From Spirochaetes bacterium RIFOXYC1_FULL_54_7 (GTDB lineage Bacteria > Spirochaetota > Spirochaetia > Treponematales > UBA12059): a stretch of DNA of 10,678 nt. The notes under the pieces were generated by a model that saw only the letters and a program-made list of their open reading frames with translations, was not told the DNA's origin and did no database searches. Positions 478 to 10,678 of the stretch are shown here, in pieces; the stretch's first letter is position 1; every line of letters begins with the position of its first letter. The stretch covers positions 11,266-21,943 of the forward strand of contig MIBM01000418.1 of NCBI GenBank assembly GCA_001830645.1, in the 5' to 3' direction. The translations under genes were made by a program, and so were the position numbers.

Positions 478-589
478 TTAACCGTGATATGGATAGATCA
501 AGATGCCTTTTCCATGATGGTACTTATACTTTGCGGTGATTGTGCTTCATCCCAGGACGAGACCATAGATATTTAAAAGTTATGAGCAG

Positions 590-612
590 GCCAACCTGGT
601 CTCCCGGACTGT
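590..612. repeat. Copy A of the GCCAACCTGG...GACTGT motif
   Basis: GCCAACCTGG at 590-599 is followed by 7 bases and GACTGT (607-612), downstream of araA on the operon strand and preceded by A/T-rich DNA. The second copy is at 10460-10481 with a 6-base spacer, also downstream of a minus-strand gene. Significance rests on the shared 10-mer, the shared 6-mer and the similar placement. Confidence 0.4.
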
Positions 613-640
613 CAAGCCTGGCTTTGTGACCTTCTGGAGA

Positions 641-680
641 ACAAGACCGCCCCCCTGTCCCTGTAGGAAGGCGGTCTTGT
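641..680 (-). terminator. Hairpin downstream of araA, likely 3' end of the arabinose operon
   Basis: A perfect 11-bp stem, ACAAGACCGCC (641-651) and GGCGGTCTTGT (670-680), with an 18-base loop lies 45 bp past the araA stop. It is strong and GC-rich, but on the minus strand it is followed by TCTCC, not a clear U-tract. It may therefore be a weak or factor-assisted terminator, or an RNA-stabilising 3' hairpin. The pairing is seen directly; the role is inferred from position. Confidence 0.5.
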
Positions 681-725
681 ACTGGACCTTGGTCCTTTTG
701 AGATCAAGACAATTCGGCTCAGTCT

Positions 726-2240
726 CTATCCCCTCCCGCCCCAGTACGCCTCCCCCCAGCCCAGTTCGTCACGCAGCCTGTTCGGGTCGGTACCTTCCTT
801 TATGTGGACAAACTCGACGCCGGCCATCTCGGCCCAGTCACGCAGGCATTCCGCTCCTACTGCACTGCTGTAGGCCGAATGATGGGCCCCGCCGGCCAGT
901 ATCCAGGACTCCGCGGCATCCCGCAGGTTGGGCAGGGGCCTCCACAGCACCCGCGCCACCGGCAGCTTTGGCATGGGCTGCGGGATGGGGATGGACTCCA
1001 CTTCGTTGAGTATCATCCTGAAGCGGTCACCGAGGTCCACCAGGGTTGCACAAATGGCTTTGCCTGGCGCTGCATCGAAGACCATGCGGGCCGGGTCGGC
1101 CTTGCCGCCTATGCCCAGTGGATGCACCTCGATCCGGGGTTTCCCCTTGGCTATGGACGGGCACAGCTCAAGCATATGGGCACCAAGGATGGCCTCCTTG
1201 CCCGATTCAAAGTGGTAGGTGTAGTCCTCCATGAAGGAGGTACCGCCGGGTAGTCCGGTAGCCATGACCTTTACCGCCCGTACCAGCATGGCGGTCTTCC
1301 AGTCCCCTTCGGCACCAAAACCATAACCCTGTTCCATCAGGCGCTGCACTGCCAGGCCGGGCAACTGGGGCAGGCCGTGCAGATCCTGGAAGGTGGTGGT
1401 GAAGGCTCCTGCCTGCCGCTCCTCAAGGAAAGCTTTCATGCCAAGCTCGAAGCAGGCCTGCTCGCGTATGGCCCTGCTTGCTGTTTCGATGGAGGCAGCA
1501 TCGCCCGAGGCTGTATTGGCGGCCAGTTCGTAGCGGTTGGTATATTCGTCAACCAAGGTATCCGCGGCCCGGGGGTCCACCGCATCGATCTTGGCCGCAA
1601 GATCTCCCAGGCCCCAGCCGTTCACCTGCCAACCAAAGCGGATCTGGGCAGAGACCTTGTCCCCTTCGGTGACCGCCACCTCCCTCATATTGTCGCCCCA
1701 GCGCACCACCGTGGAGTTCCGGCCGTCCGCAAAGGCGCAAGCGGCGCGCATCCATAGACCCATGCGCTGCCGTAGGACAGTCTCTTCCCAGTGCCCTACC
1801 ACCACCTTGCGGGGCAGACGCATCCGTGCATGGATGTAGCCGTGTTCGCGGTCGCCATGGGCAGACTGGTTCAGGTTCATGAAGTCCATGTCTATGCTGG
1901 CCCAGGGTATGTCGCGGTTGAACTGGGTGTGCAGGTGCAGCAGGGGCTTGCGGTTGGCCGCCAGCCCGGCTATCCACATCTTGGAGGGCGAGAAGGTATG
2001 CATCCAGGTGATGATGCCCGCACAGCTCGGGTCGGCGTTGGCCTCCTCGAAAATCCTCCGGATACCGACCGGATCCAGCACTGTTGGTTTCAGGATCAGA
2101 GTTCCCGGCAGAGCGGTATCCTTGGAGAAACCGTCAGCCATTATGCGGGCATGCTCGGACACCTGCCTGAGTGTCTCATCGCCATACAGGTCCTGGCTAC
2201 CCACCACGAACCAGAAGTTGAACTGTTTCAGATCTGTCAT
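726..2240 (-). CDS. araA: L-arabinose isomerase
   Basis: Cytoplasmic enzyme (EC 5.3.1.4) that converts L-arabinose to L-ribulose, the first step of arabinose use. The 504-residue product is full length (about 500 in E. coli AraA) and aligns from FWFVVGSQDLYG at the N-terminus to the C-terminal LRWNEVYYG-like end. The four metal/catalytic residues known in E. coli (Glu306, Glu333, His350, His450) correspond to E311 (in GAEGDWK), E338 (in GGTSFMEDYTYHFE), H355 (in LGAHMLELCPS) and the histidine pair H453/H454 (in LAGGAHH). AAGGAG (2248-2253) lies 7 bases before the ATG. The gene follows araB by 48 bp in the same direction and is the last gene of the operon, ahead of a strong hairpin. Base composition is GC-rich like araB. 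Nothing suggests that it is damaged. Confidence 0.97.
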   Translation of the reverse strand: MTDLKQFNFWFVVGSQDLYGDETLRQVSEHARIMADGFSKDTALPGTLILKPTVLDPVGIRRIFEEANADPSCAGIITWMHTFSPSKMWIAGLAANRKPLLHLHTQFNRDIPWASIDMDFMNLNQSAHGDREHGYIHARMRLPRKVVVGHWEETVLRQRMGLWMRAACAFADGRNSTVVRWGDNMREVAVTEGDKVSAQIRFGWQVNGWGLGDLAAKIDAVDPRAADTLVDEYTNRYELAANTASGDAASIETASRAIREQACFELGMKAFLEERQAGAFTTTFQDLHGLPQLPGLAVQRLMEQGYGFGAEGDWKTAMLVRAVKVMATGLPGGTSFMEDYTYHFESGKEAILGAHMLELCPSIAKGKPRIEVHPLGIGGKADPARMVFDAAPGKAICATLVDLGDRFRMILNEVESIPIPQPMPKLPVARVLWRPLPNLRDAAESWILAGGAHHSAYSSAVGAECLRDWAEMAGVEFVHIKEGTDPNRLRDELGWGEAYWGGRG

Positions 2241-2288
2241 TCTTGTACTCCTTGCACGGGATCCTACTGGGTTCCCTTGCGCGATCCT

Positions 2289-3986
2289 TTATTTTGTGCG
2301 GCTTTCCACGAAGGAACCAAGGACCAGGTATTCCTTGTACAGGCGGTCATAGACTTTCGAGCGTCCGGGCTCCGGCTTGTACTCGGTTTCAAGGGGCGCG
2401 GACATGGAGGCCTGGGCAGCCGGAATGTCGGGGTACAGCCCTGCCACCACGGCGGCGAACATGGCAGCCCCCATGGCCACCGCCTGGTCGCTGGCGGGAA
2501 CGGCTATGGGCATGCCCAGCACATCGGCGACTATCTGCATGACCATAGGCGACTTCCTGGCCACTCCGCCTATCGCTATGATGCCCTTCACCGGTACGCC
2601 TTCTTCCCTGAAGCGCTCGATGATGGCCCGGGAGCCGTAGGCGGTGGCCTCCACCAGGGCGCGGTAGATCCTTGGGGCGTCACTGCCCAGGGACAGACCC
2701 ATGATGGCGCCTTTGAGCCGCTGGTCCGCATCGGGGGTCCGCCTGCCGTTCAGCCAGTCCAGGGCCAGGATGCCTGTCTGTCCGGGCACAAGGTCCTTGG
2801 CCGCTGCTTCAAGGGCAGGGATGAGCCTGTCCGACAGTGTCTCGAAGATTAGGGATCGCGTTTCAGGGCTTAGACCTTCGATGCCAGGCAGGAGGGCTTC
2901 CAGAGGCCAGGAAAGGAGTTGCTTGAACCAGGCATACACGTCACCGAAGGCGCTCTGGCCGGCCTCGTAGCCCAGCATGTCCGGGACTATGGATCCGTTG
3001 ACCTGGCCGCAGATGCCTTTTACCGCTGTCTCGGTGGCCGGCCGGGGGCCTACTATCATGTCGCAGGTGCTGGTGCCCATCACCTTGACCATCCAGCCCG
3101 GCCTGGCCCCGCCGCCAACAGCACCCATGTGGGCGTCGTAGGCACCTACTGCCACAGGTATGCCCGCAGGCAGACCCAGCCTGGCGGCCCATTCGGCCGA
3201 CAGGAGTCCTGCGGCCTGGTCGCTGGTCCAGGTCTGGGTTCCCAGGCTGGCCTTGATGGCCGGCAGGCCAGGATGCAGGCCTGCCAGGAACCCGTCCGCC
3301 GGGTAGCCTCCGAAGCCGGCATGCCACATGGCCTTGTGACCCATGGCGCAGCGGCTGCGCCTGACCGCCGCCAGACCCGGCTTGCCTGGTCCGATGAGTC
3401 CGGTAAGCAGGGCCGGCATCCAGTCGCAGTGCTCAAGGAAGGAATGGGCCACCGCCGCCACTGTGGCGTCCTCGGAGAGGGCGCGCATCACCTTGGCCCA
3501 GAACCATTCGGAAGAGTAGATCCCGCCCTCGTAAACGGTGAAATCAATCCCGCCCCAGGAGCGGGCATGTTCGTTGATGTGCTGGGCCTCGGCCAGGGCG
3601 GTGTGGTCCTTCCAGAGGAAGAACATGGCCGCCGGCTTTTCGGTAAATTCAGGCTTCAGGGCCAGAGGTACTCCGTCCCTGTCCACCGCGCAGGGGGTTG
3701 AGCCCGTGGTGTCCATGGCTATGCCCTTTATCCGTGCCGCCGCCTCGGGGCCGGCCTGCTTAAGGGCACCACGCACGCAGCCTTCAAGGGTATCCAGGTA
3801 ATCCTGGGGATGCTGGCGGAAGCGGTTGGCGGCGCTGTCGCAGTACAGACCCTTGGCCCAGCGGGGGTAGGCCATGACGGCGCTGCCTGCCTCGCTGCCA
3901 TCAGCAGCATCCATTATCACCGCCCGGCATGAATCGGTGCCGTAATCCAGCCCCAGTACCCATGCCTGGCCTTTTTCCGGTTTCAT
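2289..3986 (-). CDS. araB: Ribulokinase (FGGY family)
   Basis: Phosphorylates L-ribulose with ATP to L-ribulose 5-phosphate (EC 2.7.1.16), the step after AraA. The product is 565 residues; E. coli AraB is 566. Visible signatures are the N-terminal phosphate-binding motif GLDYGTDSCRAV (12-23), the DTTGSTP segment (92-98), GAYDAHMGAVGGG (281-293) with D284 as the expected catalytic base, the MGTSTCDM adenosine-side loop (303-310), and GGVARKSP (473-480) of the second FGGY signature. AGGAGG (3994-3999) lies 7 bases before the ATG. The start overlaps the stop of the upstream LacI-type regulator as ATGA, so the two are probably translationally coupled. The alternative of a related FGGY pentulose kinase is unlikely given the araA neighbour and whole-length match. 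Confidence 0.96.
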   Translation of the reverse strand: MKPEKGQAWVLGLDYGTDSCRAVIMDAADGSEAGSAVMAYPRWAKGLYCDSAANRFRQHPQDYLDTLEGCVRGALKQAGPEAAARIKGIAMDTTGSTPCAVDRDGVPLALKPEFTEKPAAMFFLWKDHTALAEAQHINEHARSWGGIDFTVYEGGIYSSEWFWAKVMRALSEDATVAAVAHSFLEHCDWMPALLTGLIGPGKPGLAAVRRSRCAMGHKAMWHAGFGGYPADGFLAGLHPGLPAIKASLGTQTWTSDQAAGLLSAEWAARLGLPAGIPVAVGAYDAHMGAVGGGARPGWMVKVMGTSTCDMIVGPRPATETAVKGICGQVNGSIVPDMLGYEAGQSAFGDVYAWFKQLLSWPLEALLPGIEGLSPETRSLIFETLSDRLIPALEAAAKDLVPGQTGILALDWLNGRRTPDADQRLKGAIMGLSLGSDAPRIYRALVEATAYGSRAIIERFREEGVPVKGIIAIGGVARKSPMVMQIVADVLGMPIAVPASDQAVAMGAAMFAAVVAGLYPDIPAAQASMSAPLETEYKPEPGRSKVYDRLYKEYLVLGSFVESRTK

Positions 3987-5170
3987 TTTTGAACCTCCTG
4001 TGTGGTTTTTGTCGGTATTTCTTTGATGACGTATGCGCCGCGGGGGTCTCCGAGGCGTTCTCCAAGGGGTGCCCCGAAAGGTTCCCTGCCGGGTTCCTCC
4101 AGCGGGGGCACATTTTCCTTAAGGTAGATATCCAGAGGCATTTCAATCCGGGGCGCTACTGGCCTGCCAAGCACTATGGCGCGGTACAGGTTCAAAAGGC
4201 CCTGCCGACCTTGTTCCTGGGGTCTTTGCGAAATGATGGCATCGATGCCGCCGTCACTGAGCATCCGCTGGTTGGCCGGTACCAGATCAAAGCCGACAAC
4301 CACAAAAGGTCTGCCCGATCGCAGTTGCCCTCTGGCCTTGGCCAGGCGGTGGGCTGAGGCACTGGTCACAAACACACCCCGCAGTTCCGCATGGTCGCCA
4401 AGAAGGGTTGACAAACTAGTGGCCGCGGTCTCGTCCTGCTCCAGATCCACACCATCCCGGAGCACTCCCCGGGCATGCACTCCTGCCAGGTAAGCCAGGA
4501 AACCGTCCTGCCTTCGGCGTATGTGGTAGTCCTCGCTGTGGGCACTCAGGACTGCGAAGCTGGCCGGTCCACCGCTGGTTTCAGCTGTTTTGACGCTATT
4601 GCCCGCTGCAGGCAGGCAGCCTCCGGCCAGGAGATACGCCAGCCTGCCAGCCAGAAAGCCTGCCCTGTACGGATCCTGCCCTATGGTGCAGATTGGCTGG
4701 CAGCCGGGAAGGTCGGCATCGAAGAAGACATAGGGGATTTCTCCTTCTATCGATGCTATGAAAACCCGGGATTCAGAAGGCAGAACCGGGGGGAGCAGAA
4801 GGCCGTCGGGGTTTTCCTTACGCGCCTTGGCCAGGGTGTTGCGGAAGGAAAGCGGGTCATAGCGGTCGAACTCCAGGATGCTGGTCTGCACCCCGAAGTG
4901 TACCAGCTCATCCGATGCCTCGCGGATGCCCTGACTGGCCAGGTTCCAGTAGCCTGAGTCTTCGTCCTTCCGGGGCAGTATGGCGCAGAAGCTGTAGGGC
5001 TTGTTGCGTCTGAGACTTCTGGCTATGGGATTTGGTGTGAAGCCCGAACTTTCAATGATGGCTTGAATTCTTGTTCTGGTCTCGGTCGATACCCGACCCC
5101 GGCTGTGCAGGACCCTGTCCACGGTGCCTATGGATACCCCGGCGAGTTCTGCTATTTCCTTGACCGTCAT
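3983..5170 (-). CDS. LacI-family transcriptional regulator of the arabinose operon
   Basis: The 395-residue product begins MTVKEIAELAGVSIGTVDRV, a textbook LacI helix-turn-helix, followed by the hinge region (FTPNPIARSLRRN, about residues 41-53). The rest is a periplasmic-binding-protein-like effector domain ending with VVVGFDLVPANQRMLSDGG and ISQRPQEQGRQG. It is longer than usual (about 340), with an insertion after LAYLLAGG and a charged, proline-rich tail. The frame stays open to 5221, but the ATG at 5170 is preferred: AAGGA (5178-5182) lies 7 bases upstream, it fits the family N-terminus, and the longer start lies between the -35 and -10 boxes of the operon promoter. It is the first gene of the operon and its stop overlaps the araB start (ATGA). 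It probably represses its own operon, with L-arabinose or a derivative as inducer; the ligand is inferred from neighbours, not from residues. Confidence 0.93.
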   Translation of the reverse strand: MTVKEIAELAGVSIGTVDRVLHSRGRVSTETRTRIQAIIESSGFTPNPIARSLRRNKPYSFCAILPRKDEDSGYWNLASQGIREASDELVHFGVQTSILEFDRYDPLSFRNTLAKARKENPDGLLLPPVLPSESRVFIASIEGEIPYVFFDADLPGCQPICTIGQDPYRAGFLAGRLAYLLAGGCLPAAGNSVKTAETSGGPASFAVLSAHSEDYHIRRRQDGFLAYLAGVHARGVLRDGVDLEQDETAATSLSTLLGDHAELRGVFVTSASAHRLAKARGQLRSGRPFVVVGFDLVPANQRMLSDGGIDAIISQRPQEQGRQGLLNLYRAIVLGRPVAPRIEMPLDIYLKENVPPLEEPGREPFGAPLGERLGDPRGAYVIKEIPTKTTQEVQK

Positions 5171-5194
5171 GAGCGCATCCTTGGGATACCGGGT

Positions 5195-5212
5195 TGCGTT
5201 ATCGTACACGCA
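5195..5212. promoter_or_regulatory. Predicted LacI-family operator over the operon start site
   Basis: TGCGTTATCGTACACGCA is an 18-bp palindrome with perfect 5-bp arms (TGCGT/ACGCA) and a central CG, the usual architecture of LacI-family operators. It overlaps the last base of the -10 box and the predicted transcription start, so a bound repressor would block initiation. It lies directly ahead of the regulator's own gene, so autoregulation is expected. The palindrome is seen directly; identity of the binding protein is inferred from position. No second copy was noticed by eye. Confidence 0.6.
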
Positions 5213-5240
5213 GAATAGCATCCAAATGCGGAGCTGTCAA
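5212..5240 (-). promoter_or_regulatory. Promoter of the lacI-araB-araA operon
   Basis: On the minus strand, a perfect -35 TTGACA (5240-5235) is followed by a 17-bp spacer and the -10 TATTCT (5217-5212). Transcription should start near 5205, giving a leader of about 35 bases before the ATG at 5170. No other comparable sigma-70-type promoter is seen for this operon. Confidence 0.75.
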
Positions 5241-5356
5241 AACAAAATTTCAGCCAGGGGTGGGGGTGACGGGAACATACGGGTGCTGTGCACGCCAGGA
5301 AAAGAAGGGTTGAAATGCATCCATTATTAACCCCTTATATTTTAACCATGGTATGT

Positions 5357-5385
5357 TTGACAAATAGATATACATTGAATATACT
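5357..5385 (+). promoter_or_regulatory. Promoter of mazEF
   Basis: A perfect -35 TTGACA (5357-5362), a 17-bp spacer and -10 TATACT (5380-5385) make a near-consensus promoter. The predicted start near 5392 leaves a leader of only about 12 bases, with AGAGGG (5393-5398) 5 bases before the mazE ATG. The 6-mer ATATAC occurs twice, 11 bp apart (5368-5373 and 5379-5384), on the same face of the helix across the spacer and -10. These repeats could be contacted by the MazE/MazF complex, which represses its own promoter in known systems; that role here is inference. Confidence 0.75.
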
Positions 5386-5403
5386 TATGACAAGAGGGTC
5401 ACT

Positions 5404-5637
5404 ATGCAAACAGTGGTGCAAAAATGGGGGAATAGCCTGGGCATCAGGATTCCATCGGTATATGCAAAAGAATTTGAACTTAAAAACGGGAGTTTTGTTG
5501 ACATCAGTGTAGAAGAAGGGAAACAGATCATTGTACCCAAAAGAAACAGCCTGGAGGATCTAATGGCAAAAGTTTCCATGGAAAACATCCATGAACCAGT
5601 GGAAACAGGAAGTTCTGTAGGGAAGGAAGAATGGTAG
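5404..5637 (+). CDS. mazE: MazE-type antitoxin (AbrB/SpoVT fold)
   Basis: A 77-residue protein with an N-terminal AbrB-like DNA-binding domain (residues about 3-48; VVQKWGNSLGIRIPS is the hallmark start, followed by LKNGSFVDISVEEGKQIIV). A short acidic C-terminal tail (EDLMAKVSMENIHEPVE) is the kind of segment that in the family wraps around and neutralises MazF. It is expected to dimerise, bind the shared promoter and be degraded by proteases when the toxin is freed. The start has AGAGGG 5 bases upstream. The 3' end overlaps the mazF start by 7 bp, so the two are co-translated. It is divergent from the arabinose operon, with 233 bp between the two start codons. Confidence 0.93.
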   Translation: MQTVVQKWGNSLGIRIPSVYAKEFELKNGSFVDISVEEGKQIIVPKRNSLEDLMAKVSMENIHEPVETGSSVGKEEW

Positions 5638-5969
5638 AATCACGCTACGTTCCCGATAGAGGTGACATAGTCTGGCTTGATTTCAATCCACAAGCGGGGC
5701 ATGAACAAAGAGGACGAAGACCGGCACTGGTACTGTCTTATAAATCTTATAACCAGAAAATTGGTTTAGGTATTTTTTGTCCAATAACGAGTAAAGAAAA
5801 GGGCTATCCTTTTGAAGTAAGAGTTGTTGGAAAGAAGATTCATGGATGCATTTTGAGTGATCAGATCAAGAGCCTGGATTGGGAAAAAAGAAACACGGAA
5901 TATATTGAAAGAGTGAATGAAGACTTGTTGAAAGATGTTCTTGATAAGATCAAAGTAATAATTGACTAA
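5631..5969 (+). CDS. mazF: MazF-type mRNA-cleaving toxin (endoribonuclease)
   Basis: The 112-residue product is close to E. coli MazF (111) throughout, beginning MVESRYVPDRGDIVWLDFNP and ending in the DKIKVIID helix/strand. MazF proteins are ribosome-independent, sequence-specific endoribonucleases held inactive by MazE. Residues equivalent to the E. coli functional positions are present: E25 (GHEQRG), R30 (RRPALVLS) and T53 (PITSKEKGYPFEV), so the toxin looks intact. It overlaps mazE by 7 bp, the normal antitoxin-toxin order. The stop is 39 bp from the convergent stop of the caspase-WD40 gene. The RNA cleavage motif cannot be read from the sequence. Confidence 0.95.
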   Translation: MVESRYVPDRGDIVWLDFNPQAGHEQRGRRPALVLSYKSYNQKIGLGIFCPITSKEKGYPFEVRVVGKKIHGCILSDQIKSLDWEKRNTEYIERVNEDLLKDVLDKIKVIID

Positions 5970-5973
5970 ACGA

Positions 5974-5997
5974 AGCCTGCGAGCATCCGCAGTGGCT
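5974..5997. terminator. Short hairpin between the converging mazF and caspase-WD40 genes
   Basis: AGCCTGCG (5974-5981) pairs with CGCA...GGCT (5988-5997) around the loop AGCATC, with a 2-base bulge (GT). It occupies most of the 39-bp convergent gap, so it is the only candidate terminator for both genes. There is no T-run on the plus side; on the minus side TCGTTT follows. Called as a weak bidirectional terminator, mainly on position. Confidence 0.35.
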
Positions 5998-6008
5998 GTG
6001 TCAAAACG

Positions 6009-9000
6009 TTACCTCCTATTCCGAGTAAAAGGAAAGCCGAAGCTTGCGAAGATGTTATCCCTATCGACGGTCGGGTGCTGCTGGGCTGAAGGATCGATGG
6101 AGCTGACAAGCCTTGGGACCAGATCTTCGACGTAAGTACGTAATTCGTTTGTCGATATTCGACCATCCTTATCTTGGTCGGTACTCCGATCCCCGAAAGC
6201 CGTGATAATAGCATAGGTGAATGCTCCTTGTTTCCAGGCATCAGCTTCTAGTGAAGCTTCGTTTCCGCGGCTTGAGGAAAAAACAATGGCTCCGCTCCTT
6301 CGCAAGAGATCATTGGAGATCCAACGATCCTTCATTATCGCGTAGTTGGTTCCCAGCGAAGCCTGTAATTTTAGGCCTTTCATGCTGTCCTTGCTGATGG
6401 TTCTAGCATAGATGCCCTTGGCTCCAGTGCTGCTGATATCGAGGCCGCTACCATCTGATTCCCCCGACTCGCATGTGTCCATTAAAAAAAGTTTCTGTCT
6501 TGGCTGGATACCCTGCAACAAGTTATCGACTTCATCAAAGGACAAAGCGGTATCGGCAATGTTATCGAGTTGAGCATCGGCGGTTAGATAGAAGTAAACG
6601 AGTTCAGTTTTAAACACATCCGAGACTGTGGTTAACGGGAGCACAATCTCTCCGGGGATGATAGCTTCGGATTGCGTCAAATCACCGCCACTATTGTTCA
6701 TAATAGAACTGACTCCACTTTCGACCTTTTTGCGCGACGTGTCGATATAGACACCATGGCCGGAAATAAAGAGGACGAAGATATCGCAAGGTCTTGCCTC
6801 CGCGAGAAAGGATTTGGCCGTGGTTACGGATTCCTTGGTGACCATTCCGTCCTCATATGTTTTCGTGTAGACTTTTCCGAACCCCTGGCCCTCCATGCCC
6901 TTAAAGAGTGCTGAGAGGTCGCGAGCATCCTTTGCCGCGTATTTAAGATCACGGATGGTTGGATCGATGTAATCAGAGACTCCGAATCCTATGTAGTATA
7001 AATTTGGAATAGTATCGTCTTTCCAATTTACTACGAGGTTGGCACGGTAGCTCTCTACACCAGCTAAATCGCGGCATGAAATCTCGATTTTATTGGCTCC
7101 ATTCACGAGTTCGATGCGTTCGGTCGCGGTGGCGAACATTCCCGCAAGTGGTTTTCCAGCTACTCCAAAAAGCGGCACATCATTTGAATAGATCTGATAG
7201 GCACTCAGCGGTTTGCCATTCGCTACAAACCTAAGATCCAGGCTCAGCCACTGCTGAGCGGTAATGACCCGGGTGGCGGAAACTATTGTCGTTGTCGGCG
7301 CTCGATATTCACTTTTGATATCTGTTTCTCTGAGACCCATGCGATGGAGACGCTTCTCGAAAGCTCTCTTTAGGTCAGCGATAAGTTCCGGTGTAGCGTC
7401 CAGGCGTGAGGCAATGATATCGGGTCGGTTGTTCCATGTTGCGAACTGATCGATGCTCCAACTGTTCAAACCGATGACCATGGCAACAAGCGAGCTGCAA
7501 TCTGCACTCCCGTCCCAGTACCCATCCGAAGTGAAAATTATCCATTTGTTACCGACTGCCGAGAGGGCTAACCAGCTTGATGTAGCGAGATCCCAGATTC
7601 GTACGGTGCCGTCTCTAGATGCGGACATGATTGATTTGCCTTCGGGAGAAAAGGCAATGGAAATGATTCGATCACTGTGTCCCGTAAAAATTTTTACACG
7701 GTCCTTTGTCGCAATATCCCAAAGCCATATGCTCTTGTCGGAATAACTAGCGGCGAAGGATTTGCCATCAGGGGAGAAAACGGCTCGAGTTTCATCGAAA
7801 ACTCCACCCTCATTGTCATAGCCGCCGAAAACGCCTAGACATCTACCGGTGGCAAGATCCCATAGCCGAACATTCATATCTTCCGATCCAGTGAGTGCGT
7901 ATTTCCCATCCACTGATGTGTCAATCGAGAGAATGTTCCTGGTATGGCCGACGCAACTTCTGAGAACCTTGCCACTCTGTATATTCCAGATGTTCATGCG
8001 ATCTTCGACCCCGACTAGAATATTCGTGCTATCACGTGTAAATGCCAGGGAGTGGACATGAGAAAAGTTTACCTGTAATCCATCCCTTGGACCCTTGTGA
8101 AAGTCATAGCTTGCAAGACAGGAGCCGCTAGACAGATCCCAGAGTTTGATTGTTTCGTCAGTCGATCCGGATGCCGCGTAGCGACCATCGGGAGAAATGG
8201 CGACGGCGTCGACACTGAGTCTATGACTGCCGAGAGTCCTAATGAGGTTCCCATGCTCCAGTCCCCAGAGTTTGACCTCATTGTCTGTGGAACCGGTTAC
8301 AGAAAAAAGGCCGTTCGGAGCGATGGCTACTGAGTTGATTAATCCGGCAGGATTTGGGTAACGAAATGCGAGCTTGGCATTATCTAATCGCCAATACCTG
8401 AGGCTTCCATCGCCTGAACCGGCGACAAGCCCTTTCCAGTCGGGCGTCATGGCGACTGAGAATACCCCGGCTGAACCAGTCGTCTCCCCTACGAAGCGTC
8501 GTAACTCAGTGCCTGTTGCCATGTCCCATTGTGAGATTGACTTGCCATCGGAGATGAGGGAAAAGTGTAGGTCAGGGCATAGGGCTATTCGGTTGATTTT
8601 TGGCAGGCTCTCGAATGTCGATCGTTGGATCTCCTTGCCACTCTCCACATCCCAACTGATGGTTGTGCCTGTTTCGAAGATGGTCATGACTTGACTTCCA
8701 TCTTCTGAAAAACGCATTGCCACGATTCGCTTGTAGCGGTTGGCTTCATCAGGCTCTAGTTTTTTCGACATCTTTCCTGTCGCAAGATCCCAGAGTGCAA
8801 TAGGGTAGCTAGGAAGAACGTAACGGCCGTCCGGCGAGAAGGCGAGGTACTTGGGTTCAGGCGGTTTGTCGCCGAAAGTCTTGATCGGGATTAGCGTTGA
8901 AGAGTCCCATGTTTTGACCCGATTATCTGTACACGAGAAGACCTTTTTATTATCCGGTGAAAAACTCACCCAGGATATACCACTCTGGCAATCCTCCCCC

Positions 9001-9539
9001 GCCCAGGCTTTTACGGACAATTGCACTGCAGGATTGTCGCGATCATATATTTTAATACTACCTTCACCGGTCAAGGCAAGGATGCGTCTACCATCGGAGG
9101 AGAAGTTGGATGACACTACCAAGCCAACCTTATAATGAATTATTTGCTTTCCAGTAGCAAGGTCCCAGAGACGAAGCCCATCATAGCTCCCGGAAAGCGC
9201 ATATTTGTCATCGGGGGAGAATTCCACGCAATAGACAAAGCTTAAAAGGGGCTCGGTTAGACGTCTCATTTCTCTGCCTGTGGCAATGTCCCAAAGTATG
9301 ATTGCCTTGTCGTTTGAGCCGGAAAGAGCATGTAAGCCATCGTGGGACACGGTTAGGGTATTGATGTAGTTGGTATGGCCAAGTTGAGTGCGTATTTCGA
9401 GTGGGAATGGTGTAAACGGGGTTGCGAGTGCTGTGATCTCTGGTTGGATCGTTGGTGGCGAATTTACGCAGGAGAGTCCGGAAATTAGAATGATGGCTGC
9501 GGCTGCTAATAGGCGGATCGTCGGACAACCTAGCAACAT
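6009..9539 (-). CDS. Exported lipoprotein with 14 WD40 repeats and a C-terminal caspase-like (C14) domain
   Basis: With the ATG at 9539 the product has 1176 residues. The frame is open to a GTG at 9617, but the ATG has GGAGG 5 bases upstream and starts a signal peptide (MLLGCPTIRLLAAAAIILIS) ending GLSC, a loose spirochaete-style lipobox with the modified cysteine at C24. Fourteen WD40 units, recognised by their closing LWD/IWD-type ends, span about 54-650: two seven-bladed propellers, normally protein-binding. Next come the SDGYWDG-IDQF linker common in bacterial caspase-WD40 proteins and an Ig-like stretch (about 745-840). The caspase-like domain (about 847-1170) has the expected catalytic H928 in ISGHGVY and C1023 in LMDTCESGE. 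DQDKDGRISTNE (1121-1132) is a canonical EF-hand loop. A membrane-anchored, possibly calcium-dependent protease is inferred; the substrate is unknown. The 5' neighbour is a decayed TSP3 lipoprotein gene on the same strand. Composition is more AT-rich than araBA. Confidence 0.9.
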   Translation of the reverse strand: MLLGCPTIRLLAAAAIILISGLSCVNSPPTIQPEITALATPFTPFPLEIRTQLGHTNYINTLTVSHDGLHALSGSNDKAIILWDIATGREMRRLTEPLLSFVYCVEFSPDDKYALSGSYDGLRLWDLATGKQIIHYKVGLVVSSNFSSDGRRILALTGEGSIKIYDRDNPAVQLSVKAWAGEDCQSGISWVSFSPDNKKVFSCTDNRVKTWDSSTLIPIKTFGDKPPEPKYLAFSPDGRYVLPSYPIALWDLATGKMSKKLEPDEANRYKRIVAMRFSEDGSQVMTIFETGTTISWDVESGKEIQRSTFESLPKINRIALCPDLHFSLISDGKSISQWDMATGTELRRFVGETTGSAGVFSVAMTPDWKGLVAGSGDGSLRYWRLDNAKLAFRYPNPAGLINSVAIAPNGLFSVTGSTDNEVKLWGLEHGNLIRTLGSHRLSVDAVAISPDGRYAASGSTDETIKLWDLSSGSCLASYDFHKGPRDGLQVNFSHVHSLAFTRDSTNILVGVEDRMNIWNIQSGKVLRSCVGHTRNILSIDTSVDGKYALTGSEDMNVRLWDLATGRCLGVFGGYDNEGGVFDETRAVFSPDGKSFAASYSDKSIWLWDIATKDRVKIFTGHSDRIISIAFSPEGKSIMSASRDGTVRIWDLATSSWLALSAVGNKWIIFTSDGYWDGSADCSSLVAMVIGLNSWSIDQFATWNNRPDIIASRLDATPELIADLKRAFEKRLHRMGLRETDIKSEYRAPTTTIVSATRVITAQQWLSLDLRFVANGKPLSAYQIYSNDVPLFGVAGKPLAGMFATATERIELVNGANKIEISCRDLAGVESYRANLVVNWKDDTIPNLYYIGFGVSDYIDPTIRDLKYAAKDARDLSALFKGMEGQGFGKVYTKTYEDGMVTKESVTTAKSFLAEARPCDIFVLFISGHGVYIDTSRKKVESGVSSIMNNSGGDLTQSEAIIPGEIVLPLTTVSDVFKTELVYFYLTADAQLDNIADTALSFDEVDNLLQGIQPRQKLFLMDTCESGESDGSGLDISSTGAKGIYARTISKDSMKGLKLQASLGTNYAIMKDRWISNDLLRRSGAIVFSSSRGNEASLEADAWKQGAFTYAIITAFGDRSTDQDKDGRISTNELRTYVEDLVPRLVSSIDPSAQQHPTVDRDNIFASFGFPFTRNRR

Positions 9540-9638
9540 ACTGACCTCCACAAATGTACTACTTGCTATACAAATTGAATTTTGGATCGGGTTTTCTGGA
9601 TAAGGAACGACTTGCACCGATTGTGTTATTTTCCGATC

Positions 9639-9657
9639 ATTGACCTATATAGTCAAT
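9639..9657. promoter_or_regulatory. Inverted repeat upstream of the caspase-WD40 gene, possible operator/promoter
   Basis: ATTGAC (9639-9644) and GTCAAT (9652-9657) are perfect 6-bp arms around the AT-only-plus-C centre CTATATA. The minus-strand arm reads TTGACT, a 5/6 match to a -35 box, but the hexamer 17 bp on (GAAAAT) is a poor -10. It lies about 100 bp ahead of the ATG and partly inside the end of the broken TSP3 frame. The palindrome is seen; its function is a guess. Confidence 0.35.
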
Positions 9658-10284
9658 AGTGGACACGATAATTCAGGACACCTCTTAAGGTTTGACAAAT
9701 ATGCTTCTGCAGATCGTGCTGGAACAATATTCCCGAGTACTGAATGCCGATGGATCCGGATGTAAAAATTTCGATACATTCCTGAATTGAAGCCATCGCT
9801 TCCACCCGAGTGGCAAATCTGCAATATAAACTGTTGGAATCGGTTTTGGTATATTCAGTACCGGTGGTTTCGCTGGTGGCGTAGGATAGTTCATTTCCAG
9901 CGCTGGTTGTATATGCAAGCTCTATGATTGGATCACTGGCCAGGCGAACCTTGAGCCGGGGCAGGTCGGCAAGCAGCGGATTGAATCTATTTGTGGATTC
10001 CACGAAATTCGTCACTTCATCGTAATCTGAAAAGCCATCACCATGGTATCGGCAATGTATGGCGAAGTTCCAAAGGATTCCTCGGAAGTATTATCAAGCC
10101 CATCACCGTCGATATCCGTGTCATCCTGATTTATTATTCCATCGTCGTCCAGGTCGGAATCGGGCATGAAGATGGTGATTCCATCATTGAAGTCAGGTGG
10201 TGGATTGTTCGAGATGCCCGGACAGGAAGAAAGCAGGATTGCGAATAGAATGATGCCCACTGTGGTTGCTTCTTTGTGTTTCAT
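9653..10284 (-). pseudogene. TSP3-repeat lipoprotein gene, frameshifted by a one-base deletion and probably 3'-truncated
   Basis: The ATG at 10284 (AGGAG 5 bases upstream) opens a lipoprotein signal ending LLSSC (modified Cys21). It continues into a thrombospondin type 3 calcium-binding array: DSDLDDDGIINQDD, then DIDGDGLDNTSEE, then FGTSPYIADT. The frame then reads MVMAFQITMK and stops at 10012. In the next frame the sequence continues exactly as the family should: GDGFSDYDE-VTNF-ESTNRFNPLLADLPRLKVR and on to a stop at 9653. Restoring one G between 10044 and 10045 would give DTDGDGFSDYDE and a single protein of about 210 residues. Relatives I recall are larger, and the last 40 or so residues look unlike the rest, so a 3' deletion is also likely. 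The function of the family is not known to me. A sequencing error is the alternative explanation for the frameshift. Confidence 0.8.
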
Positions 10285-10508
10285 GGATACTCCTCTGGAA
10301 TCAGATACAATGGGTCAGGAATCAGCTGTCAGGACAGAGTTGAAAAAAGAAAGGTACACAGGTAGGAGCAGAACGCTTTGGTGGAGCAAATGCTTCATTC
10401 GGCATCAGTATGGCATTGATTCGGGGGTCTGAGTTATTTTTTATATAAATCATTGATGCGCCAACCTGGACTTGAGACTGTGACCAACCATCATCATGTT
10501 ATTACGTT
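10285..10508. other. Intergenic region upstream of the TSP3 pseudogene
   Basis: No gene is seen. It contains the direct repeat GGAATCAG at 10297-10304 and 10318-10325, spaced 21 bp (two helical turns) just ahead of the lipoprotein SD; an A/T-rich block near 10431-10450 that could supply a -10 on the minus strand; and the GCCAACCTGG...GACTGT motif (10460-10481) shared with the region downstream of araA. No clean terminator for the ROK-type gene was found. Confidence 0.5.
10460..10481. repeat. Copy B of the GCCAACCTGG...GACTGT motif
   Basis: GCCAACCTGG at 10460-10469, 6 bases, then GACTGT (10476-10481). It lies 28 bases past the stop of the ROK-type gene and is also preceded on the plus strand by an A/T-rich block, as in copy A. 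Possibly a dispersed intergenic repeat of this genome. Confidence 0.4.
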
Positions 10509-10678
10509 TTAATCCGCACTTGCCCATCTCATCAGCCTGCCCACATTCTTGTGGGAGAACACCTCATCCAGCACCAGTATGGCCGCTCCCAAGGTGGCTC
10601 CCTGCTCGAGCAACGCCGATTTCTTGATGACCAGGTCAGCGGTGGCCAGGGGAGTGGACCGGCGGCAGAAGCAGGCCG
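10509..10678 (-). CDS. Probable ROK-family protein (NagC/XylR type), C-terminal end only
   Basis: Fifty-five C-terminal residues are visible, ending LMRWASAD and TAA (10509-10511). The stretch VIKKSALLEQGATLGAAILV followed by LDEVFS resembles the C-terminal end of ROK proteins, where a strand carrying S-x-L-x-x-x-A-x-x-x-GAA leads into the last helix. ROK proteins are sugar kinases or DNA-binding sugar-responsive repressors. Without the N-terminus (helix-turn-helix or ATP site) these cannot be told apart. Composition is GC-rich again, like araBA. Identification rests on a short, weakly conserved segment. Confidence 0.6.
   Translation of the reverse strand, partial: ACFCRRSTPLATADLVIKKSALLEQGATLGAAILVLDEVFSHKNVGRLMRWASAD

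What the first reader, a model, noticed from the sequence alone, without database searches (positions are those of the whole stretch)
9653..10284. One-base deletion splits a TSP3-repeat lipoprotein gene
The first frame reads a clean TSP3 array up to SPYIADT, then loses it; the next frame picks up at exactly that point with GDGFSDYDE, the expected next repeat. A single missing base between 10044 and 10045 explains both. Automatic annotation would report two unrelated hypothetical proteins. It may be a true decaying gene, a phase-variable switch or an assembly error.
Basis: seen in the sequence. Interest (0 to 1): 0.7.

Follow-up and report, generated by a model that had tools for sequence, protein, structure and literature searches.

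The report
Decayed lipoprotein gene with IS3 remnant
What looks like one calcium-repeat surface-protein gene split by a small frame error is a dead stub: it has lost most of its length, ends in a scrap of a transposable element, and is therefore an ordinary piece of genome decay.

Summary
The frame break is real against the family. The first frame (to 10045) and the second frame (from 10042) match one homologue with a single homologue residue between them, and 22 of 22 aligned relatives run through this point without a stop. Likeness to the family stops near 9838. The rest of the second frame, and then a third frame, encode the C-terminus of an IS3-type transposase, followed by a terminal-repeat-like end at 9641-9666. 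The best homologue is about 935 aa, and the window matches only its first 165 or so. The remaining 770 residues find no match in the incomplete host assembly. The transposase scrap has its own frame change near 9767. So this is a truncated, multiply broken pseudogene, not a nearly intact gene or a likely phase switch (no tandem repeat found). An assembly error at the first break cannot be excluded without reads, but would not alter the verdict. Relatives carry TSP3-like repeats plus a Ser/Thr-rich region with weak, partly compositional and unproven profile likeness to beta-pore-forming proteins. Interest is low.

The parts
10045..10284 (-). Surviving 5' end of the TSP3 lipoprotein gene: start codon, signal-peptide-like stretch with lipobox-like LLSSC, TSP3-like repeats, in the first frame (this frame runs on to a stop at 10012, outside the family)
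   Evidence: matches homologue residues 7-95 (tblastn 10287-10045, 46.7% identity), score 179 against 500 shuffles, maximum 59
10042..10045 (-). Frame break between the two family pieces
   Evidence: one homologue residue lies between the two aligned ranges; 22 of 22 aligned relatives continuous here; no tandem repeat
9838..10042 (-). Continuation of the same family in the second frame: last TSP3-like repeat, FNPLxADxP motif, start of a Ser/Thr-rich region
   Evidence: 57% identity over 70 aa to L020, E 1.5e-21; score 220 against 500 shuffles, maximum 61
9820..9838 (-). Junction of the TSP3 gene with the transposase remnant (position uncertain by about 20 bases)
   Evidence: family likeness fades and IS3 likeness begins here
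9764..9820 (-). IS3-type transposase C-terminal stretch, in the same frame as the TSP3 continuation
   Evidence: 19 residues aligned with residues 255-273 of the L047 transposase, score 66; 84% identity over 19 residues to a frame in Massilia L004; four weak plasmid hits (E 0.02-0.2), two of the four annotated as IS3 transposases
9684..9767 (-). Rest of the transposase C-terminus, in the third frame (second, independent frame change near 9767)
   Evidence: 28 residues aligned with residues 273-300 of the L047 transposase, score 69; DNA alignment 42 against 300 shuffles, maximum 27
9641..9666 (+). Terminal-inverted-repeat-like right end of the IS3 remnant
   Evidence: 20 of 26 positions shared with the right end of the L047 element and 19 of 26 with its left end

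Best explanation
A pseudogene made of two broken parts. An ancestral gene for a large surface lipoprotein (signal peptide, TSP3-like calcium-binding repeats, then a long Ser/Thr-rich region, as in relatives) lost everything after about homologue residue 165. In its place lies the last 200 bp or so of an IS3-type insertion sequence: the transposase C-terminus and the right terminal repeat. The likely order is insertion of the element in or next to the gene, then a deletion that removed the left part of the element and the 3' part of the gene, then small frame changes in both leftovers. The two leftovers and their two frame changes are shown. The order of events and the deletion mechanism are inferred. 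If transcribed, the locus would give only a short lipopeptide of about 90 residues, with no expected function (inference).
For: Matches at 23 other places in 17 of the 389 other genomes of the order that were searched. The surrounding open frames are 1038-1506 aa at 21 places, 435 aa at L032 (next to a masked stretch) and 88 aa at L041. The best homologue is about 935 aa from near its signal peptide. Both window pieces match it in order, and the tail does not. Its last 770 residues find nothing at E up to 1 in the host assembly. The IS3 tail is supported in two adjacent frames at protein level and also at DNA level, against shuffles, and by a Massilia frame. The end motif resembles both ends of the L047 element.
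Against: Pfam scans of the two short IS3 pieces alone gave no family at E up to 1. The third-frame piece found nothing among plasmids, and the plasmid hits of the other piece are weak (E 0.02-0.2). DNA 9600-9850 matched no plasmid. No other copy of this IS DNA or of its end lies in the host assembly, although that is only 72.6% complete in 444 contigs; the same limit applies, whose answer itself warns that an empty result without a positive control shows nothing. No target-site duplication and no left IS end can be shown. No close relative carries the gene at this place, so the events cannot be timed. Short weak matches of the homologue elsewhere on the contig exist (best E 0.008, in L046 9879-9989, inside another gene's frame).
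Confidence: 0.88

Rival explanations
1. Sequencing or assembly error at the break near 10042-10045 in an otherwise working gene.
For: The window lies in a fragmented assembly of 444 contigs, 72.6% complete, and reaches the end of its contig; single-base errors occur in such assemblies.
Against: Even without that break the gene would run into an IS3 tail and lack about 770 residues, and the IS3 part has its own frame change.
Confidence: 0.08
2. Phase-variable switch: the frame break is reversible and turns the lipoprotein on and off.
For: Surface lipoproteins are a common class of phase-variable proteins (recalled).
Against: No tandem repeat found by TRF in 9600-10300, no homopolymer longer than two at 10040-10050, and the gene is truncated anyway.
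Confidence: 0.02
3. The two frames are two real small proteins, and the second is a distinct gene of its own.
For: An ORF list gives 90-aa and 120-aa frames.
Against: The 22 aligned relatives have them as one continuous frame. The listed start of the second ORF at 10015 lies inside a stretch conserved within those long frames, and its tail is IS3.
Confidence: 0.02

Closest known systems
Bacterial TSP3-repeat proteins (Pfam PF18884 TSP3_bac)
   Same: Acidic D-x-D-G-D-G type repeats; PF18884 matches the second-frame piece at E 0.015, and 19 of 22 relatives at E up to 0.1
   Different: Below the curated cut-off in the window (15.6 against 25 bits) and no match to the first piece; the gene is a broken stub
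IS3-family insertion sequences (DDE transposase; full-length relative in L047)
   Same: Transposase C-terminus and the TGACC...GTGGACAC-type end
   Different: Only about 200 bp kept; catalytic core, OrfA and left end absent; its own frame change
Myxobacterial TSP3-containing cohesion and motility proteins (MtsC, MtsD, CglD; NCBIfam)
   Same: One relative (L043) matches these models through its repeats (E 3.8e-7 to 1.1e-5), which would point to adhesion as a role of the intact family
   Different: Scores far below the curated cut-offs (23.8-29.3 against 350-800 bits); the other relative scanned (L045) does not match them
Binary-toxin-B / protective-antigen calcium-binding domain (PF03495) and ETX/MTX2-type beta-pore formers
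   Same: Relatives, not the window, show weak profile likeness: PF03495 in 8 of 22 members, best E 0.0008, and ETX_MTX2 in 1 of 22; profile hits to C2 component II, protective antigen and epsilon toxin at E 1e-4 to 4e-2
   Different: In the three relatives the PF03495 match (1 of 3) and the ETX_MTX2 match (1 of 3) lie below the cut-offs. Without the calcium repeats protective antigen drops out. A reversed control still draws an aerolysin-like lectin at E 0.077, so composition plays a part

Membership tests
TSP3 lipoprotein family of this order (relatives L020-L042) | Sequence homology beyond the acidic repeats (FNPLIADxP and following stretch) | tested here: met
   57% identity over 70 aa, E 1.5e-21 to L020
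TSP3 lipoprotein family of this order (relatives L020-L042) | One continuous long open frame | tested here: not met
   Frame break and loss of about 770 residues; so a remnant of the family, not a working member
TSP3 lipoprotein family of this order (relatives L020-L042) | Signal peptide with lipobox | tested here: met
   LLSSC in piece 1 aligned with LLSGC of the homologue; by inspection, no predictor run
IS3 family | Transposase sequence homology | tested here: met
   Two adjacent frames against L047, scores 66 and 69, 500 shuffles maximum 40; 2 of 4 weak plasmid hits annotated as IS3 transposases; Pfam scan of the short pieces empty
IS3 family | Terminal inverted repeats at both ends | tested here: inconclusive
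   Right end present, left end not found
IS3 family | DDE catalytic core | tested here: not met
   Only about the last 48 residues of the 302-aa transposase are represented; a remnant, not an element
Binary toxin B / protective antigen family | Match to the family's calcium-binding domain model above cut-off | tested here: not met
   Window pieces: no PF03495 match at E up to 1. Of three relatives, one matches at E 0.008, 16.8 against 25 bits
Binary toxin B / protective antigen family | Oligomeric pore formation | not testable with these tools
   No experiment possible; relatives fetched by the genome search are not among the inputs that the structure tool lists

The most novel reading that the evidence does not exclude
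The remnant marks an undescribed family of very large surface lipoproteins, two or three per genome in some members of this order, in which TSP3 calcium repeats precede a region distantly related to beta-pore-forming proteins. The window's lineage lost its only detected copy through an IS3-linked deletion.
Probability: 0.3. Interest if true: 0.5.

Novelty: new member of a known kind. Interest (0 to 1): 0.2.

Why it matters
It corrects the reading of the locus. In fact it is a stub of a large gene joined to a scrap of a transposable element. The long relatives are the more interesting objects: a large, apparently little-described lipoprotein family whose possible role (adhesion or pore-like) could be tested in harmless relatives.

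Tried and rejected
Paralogues in the host genome: none for either piece beyond itself (the other two hits have E above 0.4). Relatives in the same family f1: nothing useful. One search (58 genomes, 7 with a match at E up to 0.1, one being the host) gave weak matches; four that I looked at (L006, L007, L008, L010) lie in frames without any D-x-D-x-DG repeat that look like penicillin-binding proteins (by eye), so they are chance. One search (23 genomes) gave three weak matches besides the host (E 0.15-0.66). So the search had to go to the order. The genome-contig scan with the second-frame protein found only the Massilia fragment; this was the clue that the tail is not TSP3. Solved-structure searches with the window pieces gave nothing meaningful (best E 0.3 and 0.54), nor with one relative alone. 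DNA search of plasmids with 9600-9850: nothing. Plasmid search with the 70-aa piece: one Deinococcus record, 42.9% over 42 residues, E 0.004, not followed. Rfam: nothing in the window at gathering scores. Papers: six searches; I saw listings and abstract starts only, and read no paper. None of the listed titles or abstract starts describes this lipoprotein family; one search listed 8 of 12 papers. The library lacks most subscription journals, so this is weak evidence that it is undescribed. A structure prediction was not run: the window holds only a stub, and relatives from the genome search are not among the inputs that the tool lists. L041 (partial, 2 stops) was dropped before alignments A1 and A2. 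In the script the motif search missed L027 and L041 and landed on a later repeat in L025 and L026; the alignment covers L025-L027. In the first script the loci on the - strand were read on the wrong strand; one search corrected that.

Full report
Observation. The - strand reads an ATG at 10284, a signal-peptide-like stretch with a lipobox-like LLSSC and TSP3-like repeats up to SPYIADT (10065-10045), after which the frame leaves the pattern and stops at 10012. The frame that stops at 9653 carries GDGFSDYDE from 10042 on and then FNPLLADLP. Pfam gives TSP3_bac for the second-frame piece at E 0.015, below its cut-off, and nothing for the first piece, so the repeats alone would not settle the matter.

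Relatives settle the frame break. With the 70-aa second-frame piece as query, 18 of 390 genomes of the order matched at E up to 0.01, one being the host itself. There were 23 other places in 17 genomes, and 22 of the 23 had no stop inside the match. Open frames round the matches are 1038-1506 aa at 21 of the 23 places, 435 aa at L032 (next to a masked stretch, so not shown to be intact) and 88 aa at L041. The best, L020, is 57% identical over all 70 residues (E 1.5e-21). Its protein, read from L043, is about 935 aa from near its signal peptide. Against it the first window piece scores 179 (500 shuffles, maximum 59) and the second 220 (500 shuffles, maximum 61), with one homologue residue between their aligned ranges. 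In the alignment of 22 relatives (L041 left out) every row is continuous here and none has a stop.

Beyond about 9838 the second frame has no likeness to the homologue: 482 of 500 shuffles score as well. The first clue was that a scan of the genome-contig collection with the second-frame protein returned only a Massilia locus, through residues 77-95 alone. The Massilia frame there contains HHSDRGS...NAPMESF...RYATRAEAKASIQECIEIF, the typical IS3-family transposase pattern (recognised from recall; that record was seen without annotation). The same stretch matched four plasmid records weakly (E 0.02-0.2, 54-57% of the query); two are annotated as IS3 transposases and two carry no annotation there. 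A 302-aa transposase from the same order (L047) aligns with the window in two adjacent frames: residues 255-273 (score 66; window 9820-9764) and residues 273-300 (score 69; window 9767-9684). The remaining frame scored 28, and 500 shuffles reached at most 40. DNA alignment gives 42 against at most 27 in 300 shuffles. The two frames meet near 9767, so the transposase piece has its own frame change. Against this, Pfam found nothing in the two short pieces and the third-frame piece found no plasmid.

The IS end. The window has TGACCTATATAGTCAATAGTGGACAC at 9641-9666. The L047 element ends in a similar sequence on the right (that pattern was made from the two sequences, so the match itself is circular) and begins with one on the left at about 595-620. 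The window shares 20 of 26 positions with the right end and 19 of 26 with the left. So about 200 bp of an element of some 1250 bp remain. No second copy lies in the host assembly, which is 72.6% complete.

What happened. The TSP3 gene has lost about 770 of 935 residues, with an IS3 right end in their place. Those 770 residues found nothing at E up to 1 in the host assembly (an empty answer in an incomplete assembly is weak evidence), and on the contig only short weak matches (best E 0.008 in L046, inside another gene's frame). The simplest history is an IS3 insertion, a deletion reaching from the IS into the gene, and then small frame changes in both leftovers. The leftovers are shown; the order and mechanism are inferred. 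A phase switch is unlikely (no tandem repeat). An assembly error at the first break cannot be excluded without reads, but it would leave the truncation and the IS3 frame change.

What the long relatives may be. They share TSP3-like repeats, FNPLIADxP, a Ser/Thr-rich stretch and a later motif around an invariant N and Y. Member scans give TSP3_bac in 19 of 22, Binary_toxB (PF03495) in 8 of 22 (best E 0.0008) and ETX_MTX2 in 1 of 22. One of two relatives scanned with NCBIfam matches the myxobacterial TSP3 proteins MtsC, CglD and MtsD, far below the cut-offs, which would fit an adhesive role. L043 also has a Cadherin-like domain above cut-off. A profile of the 22 finds a biofilm-associated surface protein (E 4.8e-8, mostly the repeat part), an aerolysin-like lectin and C2 component II (E 1.4e-4 each), protective antigen (0.0017-0.036) and epsilon toxin (0.0065-0.011). 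Without the repeats, the lectin (2.4e-4), C2 component II (0.0043) and epsilon toxin (0.046-0.056) remain, and protective antigen does not. With five members, forward gives epsilon toxin at 0.0074-0.018 but neither the lectin, C2 component II nor protective antigen, and a reversed control gives the lectin at 0.077. So a distant tie to beta-pore formers is possible, with composition contributing. It is not shown, and the window stub ends before most of that region. Because of this likeness the broken gene was not read through.

Verdict. Real frame break, wrong gene model: a decayed gene stub fused to an IS3 remnant. This is an ordinary kind of thing, with a mildly interesting family behind it.

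Noticed in passing
window 6009-9617 (-): Lipoprotein-like WD40-repeat protein (1202 aa from a GTG; an in-frame ATG 26 codons in gives a signal-peptide-like stretch ending LISGLSC, by eye) with a C-terminal caspase domain (Peptidase_C14 E 3.8e-10). One of 57 relatives other than the host has matches at E up to 1e-20, on three contigs with large open frames.
   Followed up: partly
window 5404-5969 (+): MazE-like antitoxin and PemK/MazF-like toxin genes overlapping by 7 bases.
   Followed up: partly
window 5250-10500: G+C of about 0.40-0.53 against about 0.56-0.69 over 500-5250: the toxin-antitoxin pair, WD40-caspase gene, TSP3 stub and IS3 scrap may form an acquired island.
   Followed up: no
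L041 (G264:C24:14476-14652): A second partial TSP3-family match with two TAA stops, possibly another decayed copy in a genome that also has a long open one (L021).
   Followed up: no
window 10520-10678 (-): Possibly the 3' end of another gene (a sugar kinase by eye, not searched), cut by the contig end.
   Followed up: no
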